Of a DNA stretch of 36,250 nucleotides, positions 11,306-26,889 are shown in pieces. The notes beneath the pieces were generated by a model. That model did not search any database. It saw only the letters and a program-made list of their open reading frames with translations, and was not told the DNA's origin. How positions within the stretch are numbered: position 1 is the stretch's first letter; every line of letters begins with the position of its first letter. Made by a program: the position numbers and the translations under genes. This DNA is from a virus: the IMG/VR virus record IMGVR_UViG_3300018481_000046, positions 1 to 36,250 of that record; one strand, 5' to 3'.

Positions 11306-12172
11306 ATGCCAATCACAGCAGTACAGCTTGAGCGACGAAGGTCGCATCTCGGATCGTCGGACATGGCCGCGATCCTCGGCCTATCACCATATAACACAGG
11401 ATACGATATCTGGCTCGACAAAACCGGACGCCTGCCGGAGCAAGAGCCTAGCCCCGCAATGATCGCGGGTAATCATTTTGAGGACGGGATCCTCGCCCAC
11501 GCCGAAGACCGACTCGGCAAACTTCAACGCAATCAATACAGGTCAGTAAAGAACGCCGGGATCCCGCTCGGTGCAAACATCGATGCGATCGTACTCGCGA
11601 GCGGCGAGCCTGTCGAAGCGAAGGCCGTCAATTTCTTTGGCTTCACGAAGGAACTGTGGGGAGCCGAGGGAACGGACGAAGTTCCCGATCGCGTGATCGT
11701 GCAGGCCACGGTCCACATGCTCTGCACCGAGATGGATCTCTGTCACATCGCCGCGTTCATCGCAGGTCGCGGGTTCGTTCCATACATCGTCAGACGCGAC
11801 GACGAGGTCGTCAAGATCATCACCGACACGGCGGTCGACTTTTGGCAAAAGTTCGTGCTGACGAACACGCCGCCCGACAACTCGCTGCCGACCGCGAAGA
11901 CGATCGCGAAGATGCACCGGACACCCGCGAGCGTCGTGCCGATCGACTCGGAACTGATCGTGAAATGGAACGAGGCAAAGGCGATCGAGAGCGAGGCGAA
12001 GAAAGCCGCCGAGGCCGCGAAGGTCGAAGTGCTGGCCGCACTCGGTGACGCCGAAGCAGGCGAGTGCGATCTCGGGCTGCTCACATATTACGAGCAGACG
12101 CGTAAGGAGCATCTGGTTAAGGAGTCGACCTTCAGGGTCGCCCGGTTCAAAGCAATCAAAGGAGCAATCTAG
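11306..12172 (+). CDS. YqaJ-like viral recombinase/exonuclease, 288 aa
   Basis: The N-terminus RSHLGSSDMAAILGLSPYNTG (residues 12-32) is the YqaJ family start, in which a GxSD segment precedes the nuclease core. The PD-(D/E)XK active site is visible as NIDAI (D93) and EAK (E104, K106), with E59 and Q133 as likely partners. The family resects double-strand DNA 5-prime ends to give the 3-prime single strands used by annealing proteins. The C-terminus is a helical arm. It forms a pair with the RecT gene four bases downstream and is likely used in phage recombination and replication-end repair. Confidence 0.9.
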   Translation: MPITAVQLERRRSHLGSSDMAAILGLSPYNTGYDIWLDKTGRLPEQEPSPAMIAGNHFEDGILAHAEDRLGKLQRNQYRSVKNAGIPLGANIDAIVLASGEPVEAKAVNFFGFTKELWGAEGTDEVPDRVIVQATVHMLCTEMDLCHIAAFIAGRGFVPYIVRRDDEVVKIITDTAVDFWQKFVLTNTPPDNSLPTAKTIAKMHRTPASVVPIDSELIVKWNEAKAIESEAKKAAEAAKVEVLAALGDAEAGECDLGLLTYYEQTRKEHLVKESTFRVARFKAIKGAI

Positions 12173-12175
12173 AAT

Positions 12176-13330
12176 ATGACGCAGGCCATTCAGCAGCAAC
12201 GAAACCAAAGCCCACTCGCCCAGCCTGTCGCCGATAAGGCCACGCTGGAAGGGCTGATCTCCGGACCGAATTTTCAAGAGGCAGTTAAGACCATCCTGCC
12301 ATCGCATCTTAAACCCGAGCGGGTGATGAAGATGGCACTGGTCGCCGCGTCGCGCCAGCCGCTGCTTTATAAATGCACGCAGGCGTCGATCGTGCAGGCC
12401 CTGATGCGATCGGCTGAGCTTGGTCTCGACTGCTCGGGCACGCTTGGCCTCGGCTACTTGGTCCCCTACTACAACTCGGGCATCAACGGCTATGAAGCAC
12501 AGTTCATCCCCGGGTATCGCGGGATCATCGAACTCGCAAAGCGAGCGAACAAGCAGCTACAGATCGAGGCCCGGGTCGTTCATGAAAACGACGTCTTCGA
12601 ATTCGAGTACGGGCTGCACCCGATCCTTGTTCACAAACCCACGATGGGCGAGGCCGGGGAGATCACATACTTTTACGCGATCTCACGCGAGCCGGGACTG
12701 CAGCCGGAGTTCACGGTGATGACCCGCTCGGAAGTCGATGCGATCAAGCTCCGATCGAAGAGCCGCAACAAGCAGGGCCAGTTGGTCGGGCCATGGGTCT
12801 CGGACTATTCCGAGATGGGCCGCAAGACGATCACCAAACGTCACTCGAAATATCTCAGCTTGAGCGTCGAGGTTCAGGAAGCCGTCAACTACGACGACGA
12901 ACAATACCGCACCGGGCACGGTCTCGCACTCGCGAACGAAGTGTCGGCCAACGTCGGGCTGTCGGCCATGAAGGAACGGATGGCCTTGGTCCGCGAGACC
13001 GAAGATCTTCCCGAGGCGATCGAAGAGGAAAACCTGCCGGACGTGTCGAACCTTGAAGAGGTGATCGACGCGGACGACGCCGCAGAGCGTGAGGCGATCG
13101 AGACCGAGGCTGTCGACGTGGTCAACGAATCGGTCGACGAGATGACCGACGAAGAGAAGGCCGAGTTCGAATTGTACGAGCTTCGCAAGTCGGCGACCGA
13201 GATGTACCGCGACCTCGCCAAGAGCAACCCACCCGAACACCTTGCTGCGACGAAATGGCTGGGGACATCGTCGATCACCCACCTCGACAGGAAAAAGCTT
13301 GTCGAGTTTCTCAAGAAATTCTCTGGTTAA
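12176..13330 (+). CDS. recT: RecT-family single-strand annealing protein, 384 aa
   Basis: The core at about residues 30-230 includes QASIVQALMRSAELGLDCSG and FIPGYRGIIELAKRA, the well-known RecT motifs. RecT binds single strands left by the partner exonuclease (here the YqaJ-like protein) and anneals them. The C-terminal 130 residues are very acidic (for example ADDAAEREAIETEAVD), longer than in short RecT proteins, and may mimic DNA or contact a host partner. Located right after the exonuclease, it completes a RecE/RecT-like pair. Confidence 0.92.
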   Translation: MTQAIQQQRNQSPLAQPVADKATLEGLISGPNFQEAVKTILPSHLKPERVMKMALVAASRQPLLYKCTQASIVQALMRSAELGLDCSGTLGLGYLVPYYNSGINGYEAQFIPGYRGIIELAKRANKQLQIEARVVHENDVFEFEYGLHPILVHKPTMGEAGEITYFYAISREPGLQPEFTVMTRSEVDAIKLRSKSRNKQGQLVGPWVSDYSEMGRKTITKRHSKYLSLSVEVQEAVNYDDEQYRTGHGLALANEVSANVGLSAMKERMALVRETEDLPEAIEEENLPDVSNLEEVIDADDAAEREAIETEAVDVVNESVDEMTDEEKAEFELYELRKSATEMYRDLAKSNPPEHLAATKWLGTSSITHLDRKKLVEFLKKFSG

Positions 13331-18841: not shown

Positions 18842-19084
18842 ATGAAACGCATAATCCGAGATCGGCGGCTCACCCCAGAGGAAGCGGAAAAGCTCCGGGC
18901 GGTCAGGCGTGCGATCGAGAAAGAATTTCCAAAGTGTCCAAGGCCCGTGCAGACGTCAGAAAAAACCAAAGGAGTAAAACCAGATGGAAGCAACCGGAAA
19001 AGCAAGAACGGTCAAGCAGTTCATCGACCGTGGCCGCAAAGCCCAGTCCGAGGTGAACAAAATCATGGCAAAGAACGGCGATAA
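18842..19084 (+). CDS. Possible small basic protein, 80 aa
   Basis: From ATG 18842 a frame encodes MKRIIRDRRLTPEEAEKLRA, a credible helix, before entering a low-complexity basic stretch that overlaps the next gene by about 100 bases in another frame. The first half looks coding, the second half like an accidental frame. It could be a real short gene with a dispensable tail, or not a gene. I keep it at low confidence. Confidence 0.35.
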   Translation: MKRIIRDRRLTPEEAEKLRAVRRAIEKEFPKCPRPVQTSEKTKGVKPDGSNRKSKNGQAVHRPWPQSPVRGEQNHGKERR

Positions 19085-20093
19085 ACCAGCAGCAAAGAAA
19101 CCCGCAGAAAAGACGGCGAAGGTCCCAAAGGTCTTCGCACCCGTCGAGGTTGATTCGATCATCCGGACGACTTACGAGTATTCGAAGTTCAAGCGGATGC
19201 CCGGGAACAGGCCGATAAAGCCGCATCACGTCGAGGAAGTGAAAAAGAAGATCATGGAGAAGGATCTCCGCACTCCGATCGTGATAAATTCCCAGTGGCA
19301 GGTGATAGACGGCCAGCACAGCCTAGAGGCGAGGGAGCAGCTTGGGCTTGACGTGCCGTACCGCTTCGGCTCGAAACTTGACCTGCACGACGTCCAGACG
19401 CTGAACTCGACTTCCCTGCCGTGGACCAATGACGATTATGCCCACAGCTATATCGAGCAGGGCAACACCCACTACAAAACCTATCGAGCGTTCAGGAATA
19501 AATACGGGCTGCAGCATGAGGCTGCTATGATGCTGCTCTCCGGAAGGGACATGACGGCGATGCGGAAGGTTTTCCGGTCGGGGCAGTTCCGGGTTGCGAA
19601 TCTTGCGGATGCGGAGCATAAGGCGGGGATGTTTGCCGAGTTGCAGGAGTTTATCGGGCAGCACAGACCGGATGTTTTCCTGAAGGCTTTCCTGATCGCT
19701 CTCAACCGTGTCGGGTTCACTTTCGAGCGGTTCCTCGAACGGGCGAAGGAGAATCGGCGGATGTTCCAGTACTGGCCGACGATCGACGAGAATCTGCTCA
19801 TGATCGAGGAAGTCTTCAATTCCGGGGCCGGGAAAAAGGTTGCGATCCGGTACGGAGAGAGAGCGGACAAGCCAGTGAGATCCGGGGCGAAGAAGAAAAC
19901 GGCGGATCTTCGCGGCTGGTCGAAAGAGGACAAGATCGAGAAGACGGCGGATATCGAGCAGCTTGTTGATGGCGGTCTTCCGGTCGTGCAGGCGTGCGAG
20001 CGGGAAGGTTTGGCTCAGGCGACTTTCTACGCGTGGCGGGTGAAGTTCGGCAAGGATGTGAAGGCGTTGCTCAAGAAGAGGGCGGCGGCTTAA
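18984..20093 (+). CDS. ParB/Srx-like domain protein with transposase-type HTH tail, 369 aa
   Basis: GGAG precedes ATG 18984. After a basic N-terminal arm, residues 54-128 form a ParB-N (sulfiredoxin-like) domain: VDSIIR, then PIKPHHVEEVKKKI, then VIDGQHSLEAREQLG, with DGQHSLEAR (109-117) marking the nucleotide-binding loop. The middle is helical. The C-terminus (about 322-355) reads LVDGGLPVVQACEREGLAQ then TFYAWRVKFG, a helix-turn-helix of the IS3/OrfA (HTH_Tnp) type. A ParB-like fold fused to that HTH suggests a site-specific DNA-binding regulator or partition/nicking factor. Next to the putative origin it could act there. Confidence 0.8.
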   Translation: MEATGKARTVKQFIDRGRKAQSEVNKIMAKNGDKPAAKKPAEKTAKVPKVFAPVEVDSIIRTTYEYSKFKRMPGNRPIKPHHVEEVKKKIMEKDLRTPIVINSQWQVIDGQHSLEAREQLGLDVPYRFGSKLDLHDVQTLNSTSLPWTNDDYAHSYIEQGNTHYKTYRAFRNKYGLQHEAAMMLLSGRDMTAMRKVFRSGQFRVANLADAEHKAGMFAELQEFIGQHRPDVFLKAFLIALNRVGFTFERFLERAKENRRMFQYWPTIDENLLMIEEVFNSGAGKKVAIRYGERADKPVRSGAKKKTADLRGWSKEDKIEKTADIEQLVDGGLPVVQACEREGLAQATFYAWRVKFGKDVKALLKKRAAA

Positions 20094-23673: not shown

Positions 23674-24137
23674 AGAGAGAAATTCCTGAAGTACGGATCC
23701 GGACGAACCACTGCAGCAGGTGCGGCGCCCGGATGGATTGCGCGAGCAACCCGCTAACGCCAAAGGTGGTCCCGCGCGAGGGCGACGTTTCGGTCTGCCT
23801 GATGTGCGGCCACATTACGCGGTTCGCCCGGGACATGAAGCTGATCGAGATCTCGCCGGACGAGCGGCGGCAGATCCTGCTTTCGAACCCGAAGATCGGG
23901 GCACTGCTCAAAACCCGCGAGCATGTCGTCGGCGGTTCGAAGATGTCGGGGTTCGATATCTTTCCGATGGGCTTTTTGAACGATCTGTACGACAAGGTGA
24001 AGGCGGCGGGTCCGGAGGGTTTACCGCTTGAGGATCTCGACGAGGAGGAGATGCTCGGAGCCGGATATTTGACGGGGATGAAGAAGTTCGAGGTGGATCT
24101 GGACGGCCCGGTTCCGCAGCGGATACGAGCCATATGA
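23670..24137 (+). CDS. Zinc-knuckle protein ending in the first array repeat, 155 aa
   Basis: NHCSRCGARMDCASNPLTPK (residues 13-32) and SVCLMCGHITRFA (about 41-53) give two CxxC sets, a zinc finger. The rest is helical with a DLDEEEMLGAGYLTG acidic stretch. The last codons, RIRAI then TGA, are read from the first unit of the repeat array (CGAGCC begins at 24126), so gene end and array overlap. It is the last gene of the rightward run before the array. The function is unknown. Confidence 0.7.
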   Translation: MKREIPEVRIRTNHCSRCGARMDCASNPLTPKVVPREGDVSVCLMCGHITRFARDMKLIEISPDERRQILLSNPKIGALLKTREHVVGGSKMSGFDIFPMGFLNDLYDKVKAAGPEGLPLEDLDEEEMLGAGYLTGMKKFEVDLDGPVPQRIRAI

Positions 24138-24371
24138 ACAGAGCTTCAAATTCGAAGAGCGAGCCATATTCTTCGACTTTCATGACAAACGGGCGAGCCA
24201 AATATCGCGAGTTTCACACAGAAGGGAGCGAGCCATCACACCTGAGTTTCATCGAGAGGGAGCGAGCCATTAATTGAGACTTTCATAGATCGGAAGCGAG
24301 CCATTATCAGTGATCGTCATCTCAAGAGAGCGAGCCATTGAACTCGACCTTCACGCTATATGAGCGAGCCA
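24126..24371. repeat. Interleaved repeat array, block 1 (8 units)
   Basis: Eight copies of a 34-35 bp unit, with CGAGCC at 24126, 24160, 24194, 24229, 24263, 24297, 24331 and 24365. Each unit reads GAGCGAGCCA, 8-9 variable bases, GANTTTCA, 8-9 variable bases. All variable segments differ. The first copy contains the stop of the preceding gene and the last contains the start of the next (ATGAGCGAGCCA). Confidence 0.9.
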
Positions 24372-24779
24372 TCGAAAGAAGAACTTGACGAGATCCAGAC
24401 CCGCTGGCAGGGCTGGCGGGAAAACTTTCAGGAGTTTCTCAAAGTCGTGGGACACGGCCACTACATTCTCGAAGGAACGGAACCGAAAGAGGTTTCGCTC
24501 ATCGAGGCGGCGGAGTGGATGGAGGCCAATAACGAGAAGCGCCAGATCGCCCGTGACGAGCGGGGCGGCGTGACGGTCTCGACGGTGTTTCTCTGTTTCG
24601 ACCACAACTTCGGTCCCGGTCCGCCCGTGCTGTTCGAGACGATGGTCTTCGGCGGCGAGCATGACGGCGAGATGGAGCGGTACACGACGTACGCCGACGC
24701 TCTGGTCGGTCACGACGAGATGCTGGTGCGGGTCTGGGGACCGGAGGCACATGTTTTGGAGGCGGAGTTTATTTCATAG
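24360..24779 (+). CDS. Unidentified phage protein embedded in the array, 139 aa
   Basis: The ATG at 24360 runs directly into a repeat copy, which encodes residues SEP, and the stop TAG (24777-24779) is formed by a degenerate copy (ATAGCC, 24776). The protein is otherwise ordinary: helical first half (IQTRWQGWRENFQEFLKVVG), then STVFLCFDHNFGPGPPVLFE and a GHDEMLVRVWG end, a pattern I recall from phage hypotheticals. No Shine-Dalgarno site is evident, so translation may depend on array context. It lies between blocks 1 and 2. Confidence 0.75.
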   Translation: MSEPSKEELDEIQTRWQGWRENFQEFLKVVGHGHYILEGTEPKEVSLIEAAEWMEANNEKRQIARDERGGVTVSTVFLCFDHNFGPGPPVLFETMVFGGEHDGEMERYTTYADALVGHDEMLVRVWGPEAHVLEAEFIS

Positions 24780-25417
24780 CCAACAGGAAGCGACTTTCAT
24801 ACTGTTTGAGCGAGCCACGATCGCCGAGTTTCAACCTTAATGAGCGAGCCAACAGAATTAGATTTTCAATGAGATAGTGCGAGCCATTTGTAATTGAGTT
24901 TCATGTTTACGGAGCGAGCCGGAAAACGCGATCTTCATGGACGCTGTGCGAGCCGTAAGGCGGGAGTTTCATCATCATCGAGCGAGCCATTAGGTATGAC
25001 TTTCAGAATCTAAGGAGCGAGCCAGCAACGCCGATTTTCATATTGTGAGTGCGAGCCACTGGGTTTGGAATTTCACACACCGGGAGCGAGCCACAACACC
25101 TGATGTTCATTATGAAAAGTGCGAGCCACAGGCTGTGATATTCAGCAATTGCGAGCGAGCCAGAATTCGTGAATTTCGCGTGAATGGAGCGAGCCAAGCT
25201 AGTACGACTTTCAAGGTCTTCGTGCGAGCCACATTAGTGGATTTTCAAAATGTAGGTGCGAGCCATGCCCACCGACTTTCATGAGGAAGATGCGAGCCAC
25301 AACCAAAGACTTTCACAACCAAGGAGCGAGCCGAATTGTATGAGTTCCATGCTGAATGAGCGAGCCAAGACATACAATTTCCATACCAAAGGAGCGAACC
25401 AAAAACTATGAGTTTCA
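24776..25417. repeat. Interleaved repeat array, block 2 (19 units)
   Basis: Units start (CGAGCC) at 24776 (degenerate ATAGCC), 24811, 24845, 24880, 24915, 24949, 24983, 25018, 25052, 25087, 25122, 25156, 25190, 25225, 25259, 25293, 25327, 25361 and 25395 (CGAACC). Spacing is always 34 or 35. The two fixed blocks are evenly interleaved about 17 bp apart. The variable 8-9-mers are all different and visibly richer in A/T than the surrounding genes. The last copy's second block forms the start of the next gene (ATGAGTTTCA). Confidence 0.93.
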
Positions 25418-26268
25418 AAGCAGCAGTCGAGATCATCGACCCGGAAAATATCGAAGCGACCGCGCTGAAAAAGCTGACCCGCGATCTGCGCGAGGCGGCG
25501 AGGACCATGACCGCGACGGAAGTCCGCTTCCTCGTTGATAGCTATTATGAGATGCAGGAGAACCGCATCCGAGCCGCGAACCGTCTTCGGGCGGCGTCGG
25601 TCGATCGGGAGCCGCACCAGACCATTGTGTGGCTGCTCGACAACACTCGGGTTTTGGAGACGCGGGTCAGGACGGCGTTGCAAGCGTACGCCGAGAACGA
25701 CTTCGTCGGTTCGTGGTCGATGTCGATCGTCGGCATCGGTCCGGTCATCGCGGCGGGGCTGCTCGCTCACATCGATATCGAGAAGGCTCCGCACGTCGGT
25801 CACCTTTACGGTTTTGCGGGTCTGACGACCAAGGCGAAGGAGTCGTGGACCAAGGGAACCAAGCGACCGTACAACGCGACGCTGGCGACGCTGTGCTGGA
25901 AGATCGGCGAGTCGTTCGTCAAACAGCAGAACCGCGAGAACGACTTTTACGGAAAATATTACGTAAAATTTAAGACGAAAGAGATCGAGAAAAACGAGTC
26001 GGGAAAAAACAAGGAAGCCGCCGAGAAGAAGCTGGCGACGACCAAGATCGGAAAAGAAACCGAAGCCTACAAGGCCTACATCACGGGCAAGCTGCCGGAC
26101 GCCCATGTACATGCCCGGGCGAAGAGGAAGGCGGTGAAGCTTTTCCTTTCGCACTGGTTTGAAGTGTCGTTCAAGGCGCGATACCCTGAACGCGAATGTC
26201 CGCGCCACTATGCGTTTCAGGAGCTTGGACATCAAGAAATTATCTCGGTGCCGAACGATCCGTTTTAG
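25408..26268 (+). CDS. IS110-family-like recombinase C-terminal protein lacking the RuvC-like domain, 286 aa
   Basis: Residues 105-165 (SMSIVGIGPVIAAGLLAHID, then LYGFAGLTTKAKESWTKGT and KRPYNATLATL) match the Transposase_20 domain of IS110/IS1111/IS902 enzymes: a helix-hairpin-helix IVGIGPVIAAGL (107-118), then GLT..ES (S146 near the place of the catalytic serine) and K/R. Residues 1-104 are helical, coiled-coil-like. No DEDD RuvC-like domain, normally N-terminal in IS110, is visible. Residues 185-225 are Lys/Glu-rich. Both ends lie in repeat copies: start ATGAGTTTCA, stop TAG within TTTTAGCC. A guided recombinase or an array-binding protein are both possible. Confidence 0.85.
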   Translation: MSFKAAVEIIDPENIEATALKKLTRDLREAARTMTATEVRFLVDSYYEMQENRIRAANRLRAASVDREPHQTIVWLLDNTRVLETRVRTALQAYAENDFVGSWSMSIVGIGPVIAAGLLAHIDIEKAPHVGHLYGFAGLTTKAKESWTKGTKRPYNATLATLCWKIGESFVKQQNRENDFYGKYYVKFKTKEIEKNESGKNKEAAEKKLATTKIGKETEAYKAYITGKLPDAHVHARAKRKAVKLFLSHWFEVSFKARYPERECPRHYAFQELGHQEIISVPNDPF

Positions 26269-26442
26269 CCATGAATTTCGATTTTCATACTACGTGAGCG
26301 AGCCAATAATCCTCGAATTTCGTGACAATGGAGCGAGCCAATATACGTGACCTTCGAAATAGAAGAGCGAGCCATGACGTCCGATTGACAGAGTACCAGT
26401 GCGAGCCACGCCCAGTGATTTTCATGCCGTCCGAGCGAGCCG
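26265..26442. repeat. Interleaved repeat array, block 3 (6 units)
   Basis: Units at 26265 (degenerate TTAGCC, holding the upstream stop), 26299, 26334, 26368, 26402 and 26436, with the same 34-35 bp spacing as blocks 1 and 2. Block B is less well kept here (GACCTTCG, GATTGACA). The last copies lie inside the 3-prime end of the leftward nuclease gene, whose stop TGA reads TTTCA backwards. Confidence 0.85.
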
Positions 26443-26889
26443 GAACATTTTCAAAACGTCCTCGGGCTTGGCCCCATGTTCGAACCGGGCGGCACGGGCA
26501 GCAGCGGCGCCCATAGCCATCCGATCCGGAGCGGCGAGGTCGAGTGCAACGATCCCGCCGCCCGGAAGACAGCAAGGATATTCTCTCACCTCGGGCGAGC
26601 CGACGACCATGAAAACTTCGCATCCGGTCGCTGCGGCCAGTTCCCGGCACTTCCGGATCTCGTCCGGGTAAAAGTCGGTCGGCTTCACTTCGATCCACAT
26701 CCGCAGCCCCGGCAGGTAGAAGTCCGGCAAATACCAACCTGCCCCAAGCGCAAAACCCTCCAGTTCGTACTCCCGCTTAAACCCAAGCACTTCGAGACAG
26801 ATCGCCCATCGGGCCTCGGTCCGCGATCGGTGAAGCACGCCCATAAACCACGTCGGGATCGGCTTCCAGTCTGGGTTGCGGTCATGCAT
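26422..26889 (-). CDS. PD-(D/E)XK endonuclease-like protein, 155 aa
   Basis: SRTEARWAICLEVLGF (22-37), then GWYLPDFYLPGLRMWIEVK (51-69), has the fold signature E...D..(E)xK: E26, D56 and E67-V-K69 are the likely metal ligands. A helix beyond residue 75 and a VFMVVG strand complete a small nuclease core. It may be a homing or resolvase-type endonuclease. It is the only leftward gene in this region, and its last codons and stop are encoded by the array. It could cut within or next to the array, or act in junction or terminal processing. Confidence 0.75.
   Translation of the reverse strand: MHDRNPDWKPIPTWFMGVLHRSRTEARWAICLEVLGFKREYELEGFALGAGWYLPDFYLPGLRMWIEVKPTDFYPDEIRKCRELAAATGCEVFMVVGSPEVREYPCCLPGGGIVALDLAAPDRMAMGAAAARAARFEHGAKPEDVLKMFRLARTA

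What the first reader, a model, noticed from the sequence alone, without database searches (positions are those of the whole stretch)
24126..26442. Interleaved two-motif array with paired variable 8-9 bp segments
I count 33 units (29 with exact GCGAGCC, four degenerate) at a constant 34-35 bp step. Each has two different conserved blocks, A = GAGCGAGCCA and B = GANTTTCA, and two variable segments, V1 and V2, of 8-9 bp. No V1 or V2 was seen twice. This is not a classic CRISPR (one repeat, longer spacers) nor a simple iteron, because the sequence between fixed blocks is diverse while its length is fixed. I did not recognise a described element of this form. Possibilities: a source of paired short guides, an array of sites for a dimeric or two-domain protein, or a partition, packaging or origin locus.
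Basis: seen in the sequence. Interest (0 to 1): 0.97.

Follow-up and report, generated by a model that had tools for sequence, protein, structure and literature searches.

The report
Phage TIGR guide-RNA array with TasA
The repeats are a known type of phage-encoded guide-RNA array (TIGR) that flanks the gene for its RNA-binding partner protein TasA, so this is a clear new example of an RNA-guided DNA-binding system first described in 2025 and not an unknown element.

Summary
The array is real. It has 29 exact and 4 degenerate or truncated GCGAGCC blocks, forming 30 edge–spacer A–loop–spacer B units with a 34–35 bp step. It matches NCBIfam TIGR_Tas (200.7 bits, cut-off 100), the sequences of TasR and TasH, and their folds (Z 18–19). 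It has no nuclease domain, so it is a TasA. The array architecture matches the published TIGR dual-repeat array. The edge repeat is nearly the one next to the experimentally tested SpTasH of Salicola phage CGphi29. Hundreds of IMG/VR contigs encode relatives, and 72 of 80 examined carry such an array. Spacer pairs showed no target above permuted controls in this phage or related contigs. Arrays of near-identical phages gain, lose and reorder whole A+B units, so the segments do turn over. What TasA does in nature remains unknown. New member of a known kind.

The parts
24123..24371 (+). TIGR sub-array 1: 7 units; first edge repeat is 5'-degenerate (ATACGAGCCA); last edge repeat (24362-24371) overlaps the start of ORF 24360-24779
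24360..24779 (+). 139-aa ORF of unknown function between sub-arrays 1 and 2; start codon lies in an edge repeat (ATGAGCGAGCCA); no Pfam, PHROG or NCBIfam match; one distant homologue in related contig G014 (39%)
24780..25417 (+). TIGR sub-array 2: 18 units; [quoted passage not shown] last edge repeat (GAGCGAACCA) and last loop-like block overlap the ribosome-binding region and start codon of tasA
25408..26268 (+). tasA: 286-aa solo-Nop-domain Tas protein (start ATGAGTTTCA)
26269..26442 (+). TIGR sub-array 3: 5 units; starts with truncated CCA right after the tasA stop codon; ends in edge repeat GAGCGAGCCG

Best explanation
This is a phage-borne TIGR-TasA locus. The array is transcribed on the + strand and cut within the edge repeats (GAGCGAGCCA) into about 30 short RNAs of roughly 34-35 nt. 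Each carries spacer A, a loop repeat (GANTTTCA) and spacer B. A dimer of the solo-Nop protein TasA (25408-26268) binds one such RNA, one protomer holding the edge repeat and the other the loop repeat. The complex opens and bends a DNA site in which spacer A pairs with one strand and spacer B with the other. Written on one strand, the site is A followed by the reverse complement of B, with a gap of 0-2 nt (my derivation from the published C-5 cut rule). Because TasA lacks HNH and RuvC domains it should bind without cutting, probably blocking or modulating transcription or replication of the target element. Shown here: array anatomy, membership of the protein, lack of a nuclease domain, same-strand linkage, and the same kind of array beside tas genes in many phages. 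Inferred from the published relatives: transcription, processing, RNA binding, DNA binding. Unknown: the targets and the biological role.
For: NCBIfam NF052498 TIGR_Tas: E 2.7e-59, 200.7 bits against a curated cut-off of 100. phmmer: TasR 9mty 3.2e-12, TasH 21kl 4.8e-11, IS621 only 0.02. Profile of 22 family members: 9mty 3.4e-25, 21kl 1.6e-13. AlphaFold2 model pLDDT 82.5, pTM 0.80. Best folds are TasH and TasR, Z 17.8-19.3; IS110 recombinases Z 12.9. Residues 32-286 of the model cover TasH 64-309 and TasR 111-322, so the N-terminal nuclease part has no counterpart. The tblastn hit in phages is Salicola phage CGphi29, the SpTasH locus of the paper. That locus has an AAGCGAGCCA / AAGACAACCA array. 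Array anatomy agrees with PMC12045711: 8-12 nt alternating repeats, 8-9 nt spacers, arrays up- and downstream of tas, 5'-truncated first edge repeat. Relatives: 338 viral contigs; periodic arrays at 72 of the 80 best of them against 3 of 118 unrelated loci.
Against: No RNA data exist for this phage, so transcription and processing are inferred. No spacer pair has a target above permuted controls in this phage, in 28 related contigs, or in all loci held. No intrinsic terminator was found after the array, although TIGR arrays typically have one. The unit is 34-35 nt, not 36, because the loop repeat is 8 nt. Edge and loop box C differ (CCA against TCA), whereas the paper reports that the box motifs almost always covary; other TasA arrays here do the same.
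Confidence: 0.93

Rival explanations
1. The blocks are double-stranded DNA sites for a replication or partition protein (iteron or parS-like), and the variable segments are neutral spacers.
For: Fixed spacing, intergenic position, and a ParB-like protein encoded at 18984-20090 (phrog_12305, 1.9e-25).
Against: The only gene conserved next to such arrays is tasA; ParB has no homologue in 28 related contigs. Variable segments arrive, leave and reorder as A+B units in close relatives, which neutral linkers between sites would not be expected to do. The linked protein belongs to a family whose RNA-guided action is solved.
Confidence: 0.03
2. TIGR-TasA locus in which a separate nuclease cuts the bound target, for example the PD-(D/E)XK-like protein encoded on the other strand at 26422-26889.
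For: The gene overlaps the end of sub-array 3 and has Holliday-junction-resolvase/endonuclease-like PHROG matches.
Against: It is transcribed in the opposite direction and has no homologue in any of the 28 related tas contigs. Such nucleases are common in phages (general knowledge).
Confidence: 0.05
3. The locus is an IS110-type element using a bridge RNA for recombination.
For: Pfam Transposase_20 match 5.6e-05; PHROG 4285 is labelled transposase.
Against: NCBIfam IS110 model 26.6 bits against a cut-off of 140. No N-terminal DEDD domain: the model aligns to IS621 only from its residue 125. A many-unit array is not a bridge RNA.
Confidence: 0.01

Closest known systems
TIGR-TasA dual-repeat systems (Faure et al. 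2025, PMC12045711, e.g. FpTIGR)
   Same: Solo Nop protein; alternating edge and loop repeats; two short spacers per unit; arrays on both sides of tas; truncated first edge repeat; found in phages.
   Different: Edge and loop sequences are this locus's own; about 30 units (published typical 5-15); loop of 8 nt and unit of 34-35 nt instead of 36; a 139-aa ORF inside the array; no terminator seen.
SpTIGR-TasH of Salicola phage CGphi29
   Same: Nearly the same edge repeat (AAGCGAGCCA), 8-nt spacers; the only phage hit by tblastn in the annotated collection.
   Different: 26.8% protein identity over 64% of the query; TasH carries an N-terminal HNH nuclease that the window protein lacks; loop AAGACAACCA.
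IMG/VR contig 3300037153_000663 (L127/G001)
   Same: TasA 47% identical; identical edge repeat GAGCGAGCCA; 41 exact edge blocks directly after tasA.
   Different: Loop GAGAGTACCA, unit of 36 nt, otherwise almost unrelated phage (one other shared gene).
IS110 family recombinases (IS621, ISCro4)
   Same: Nop-like RNA-binding part, Z 12.9.
   Different: Have a DEDD domain and a single bridge RNA; no array.

Membership tests
TIGR-Tas (TasA subtype) | Tas protein with Nop domain | tested here: met
   NF052498 200.7 bits, cut-off 100; 9mty/21kl by sequence and fold
TIGR-Tas (TasA subtype) | Two distinct alternating 8-12 nt repeats separated by short (8-9 nt) unique spacers | tested here: met
   10-nt edge, 8-nt loop, 28/28 distinct A and B spacers
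[quoted passage not shown]
   Blocks directly before and after 25408-26268; CCA starts at 24780 and 26269
TIGR-Tas (TasA subtype) | No HNH or RuvC domain (TasA rather than TasH/TasR) | tested here: met
   Model aligns to TasH from its residue 64 and to TasR from 111; almost entirely helical
TIGR-Tas (TasA subtype) | Box D and box C motifs matched between edge and loop | tested here: inconclusive
   Box D GA in both; box C is CCA in the edge, TCA in the loop; the same kind of mismatch is seen in other family arrays
TIGR-Tas (TasA subtype) | Rho-independent terminator after the last edge repeat (typical, not defining) | tested here: not met
   None near 26442 on + in a consensus scan; the paper calls it typical, so this does not exclude membership
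TIGR-Tas (TasA subtype) | Processing to tigRNAs and tandem-spacer DNA targeting | not testable with these tools
   Needs RNA sequencing and binding assays
CRISPR-Cas | One 25-36 nt repeat, longer spacers, Cas proteins | tested here: not met
   Two short repeats; no Cas-type match for the proteins next to the array
IS110 transposon | DEDD catalytic domain and full-length IS110 transposase | tested here: not met
   26.6 bits against cut-off 140; IS621 aligned only from residue 125
Iteron or parS partition site | Cognate replication or ParB protein conserved with the array | tested here: not met
   ParB-like ORF 18984-20090 has no homologue in 28 related array contigs

The most novel reading that the evidence does not exclude
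The phage carries a large, fast-evolving set of two-part guides with which a nuclease-free TasA silences rival elements. Whole A+B units are traded between phages, and the last edge repeat, which forms the ribosome-binding region of tasA, lets TasA-RNA regulate its own synthesis.
Probability: 0.1. Interest if true: 0.65.

Novelty: new member of a known kind. Interest (0 to 1): 0.3.

Why it matters
The function of TasA and the origin of TIGR spacers are stated open questions in the founding paper. This locus adds a long array, and the relatives gathered here show how such arrays change: by whole units, without end polarity, much faster than the flanking DNA. Groups of near-identical phages with different arrays are the material in which real targets could be sought.

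Tried and rejected
(1) Target search with the published geometry (A, 0-2 nt, reverse complement of B), 421 distinct pairs from 27 arrays against 28 contigs with arrays masked: counts at 0-3 mismatches equal those of permuted pairs and of wrong geometries; repeated for 30 window pairs against all loci held, again no excess. (2) Similarity or complementarity between A and B of a unit: none. (3) Spacers under stronger constraint than tasA: no excess conservation in 8 of 10 pairs of related arrays; lower divergence in two comparisons that share L245, which could be recent exchange. (4) TerL and TasA single-sequence searches of viral contigs found nothing; the profile search did. (5) First AlphaFold2 run with two sequences failed (pLDDT 40.7). 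(6) Alignment A2 had three proteins in a wrong frame and was replaced by A3. (7) No Rfam match. (8) Whole-collection scans for single 16-nt targets were not run: by my estimate chance matches would swamp them.

Full report
Observation. The array is present and far beyond chance. GCGAGCC occurs 29 times exactly between 24159 and 26441, with two one-base variants (24125, 25394) and two truncated copies (24780, 26269). The strict A-B pattern occurs 14 times and never in 200 shuffled windows. It should be added that the array is in three blocks, separated by a 139-aa ORF (24360-24779) and a 286-aa ORF (25408-26268), and that complete units number 30. All 28 pairs scored by the chain finder are different.

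Identification. Pfam and PHROGs call it IS110-type transposase. NCBIfam assigns it to TIGR_Tas at twice the curated cut-off and rejects IS110. Its nearest solved relatives by sequence are TasR (9mty) and TasH (21kl). A good model (pLDDT 82.5), built from 22 family members, has the TasH and TasR fold at Z 18-19, clearly above IS110 at 12.9. The alignment starts after the HNH domain of TasH and after the RuvC domain of TasR, so the window protein is the nuclease-free form, TasA. The NCBIfam description 'endonuclease' should not be carried over.

Array against the published kind. The TIGR paper (PMC12045711) describes alternating 8-12 nt edge and loop repeats with about 9-nt spacers (8 nt in SpTIGR), placed up- and downstream of tas, beginning with a truncated edge repeat. 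All of this is met. The edge repeat GAGCGAGCCA is nearly that of SpTIGR in Salicola phage CGphi29, AAGCGAGCCA. That phage is also the only phage hit by tblastn among 50,697 phage records. Differences are small: a 34-35 nt unit, an 8-nt loop, more units than usual, box C CCA in the edge but TCA in the loop, and no terminator found.

Relatives. A pattern scan found one contig with the same edge, a different loop, 41 exact edge blocks, and a TasA 47% identical directly upstream. Profile scans found 27 and then 338 viral contigs with relatives, and ten well-matching genome loci from Acidobacteria, Halomonas and others. Periodic arrays lie at 72 of the 80 best viral loci, against 3 of 118 unrelated loci. 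Almost no other window protein is shared with the 28 contigs compared, so the conserved module is tas plus array.

Do the variable segments turn over? The window has no close relative in the collections searched, so this was tested in related TIGR phages. Five phages with 93-96% identical DNA across tasA share only some of their 6-11 units. A and B usually travel together. Order can be reversed: units 5, 7, 8 of G004 are units 6, 5, 4 of G017. One unit of G008 joins spacer A of one unit to loop and spacer B of another. Further pairs show the same gains, losses and rearrangements along the whole array, with no preferred end; one group shows repeated sharing of B with a different A. In retained units the spacers change at about the rate of tasA.

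Targets. From the published cut rule (8-nt 3' overhangs, C-5 rule) I derived the site as A, 0-2 nt, reverse complement of B. Neither this phage nor related contigs hold such sites above permuted controls. The spacers in the window are AT-rich (42% GC) relative to the record (58%), and most other arrays show the same sign. This fits targets elsewhere, or AT-rich sites that open easily; it is not decisive.

Mechanism. The most likely mechanism is RNA-guided, non-cutting DNA binding by a TasA dimer. Steps after the DNA anatomy are inferred from solved relatives. The natural role is open in the literature as well. A small additional clue is that the last edge repeat of sub-array 2 (9 of 10 matches) lies in the ribosome-binding region of tasA; similar overlap occurs in several but not all relatives.

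Verdict. A well-supported new member of a known kind.

Noticed in passing
window 25391-25417: The terminal edge repeat of sub-array 2 overlaps the ribosome-binding region of tasA (9/10 matches; about 1% of other ORFs in the window match as well); similar overlap in several relatives (G012, G016, G019, G022) but not in others. Possible self-regulation.
   Followed up: partly
window 24123-26442 and related arrays: Spacer GC is below record GC in nearly all arrays (window 42% against 58%), correlated with record GC (r 0.64, with near-duplicate arrays included).
   Followed up: partly
L131-L139, L146 (G003-G011, G017): Near-identical phages (93-96%) carry TIGR arrays that share only part of their units, in changed order, with one chimeric unit: material for studying array evolution.
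   Followed up: yes
L239, L240, L242, L244: In this group many units share spacer B exactly but have different spacer A, as if crossovers occurred in the loop repeats; L240 has about 46 units.
   Followed up: partly
window 18984-20090: ParB-like protein with a C-terminal transposase-type HTH; not adjacent to tasA, unlike the published tasParB operons.
   Followed up: partly
window 26422-26889, - strand: Possible PD-(D/E)XK-like nuclease (weak resolvase/endonuclease PHROG matches) convergent with, and overlapping, the end of the array.
   Followed up: partly
window 11306-13330: YqaJ-type exonuclease followed by a RecT annealing protein: a phage recombination pair.
   Followed up: no
databases (PHROG 4285, PF02371, NF052498): Family annotations mislead: PHROG 4285 and Pfam call TasA a transposase, and NCBIfam NF052498 calls it an endonuclease although this subtype lacks a nuclease domain.
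   Followed up: yes
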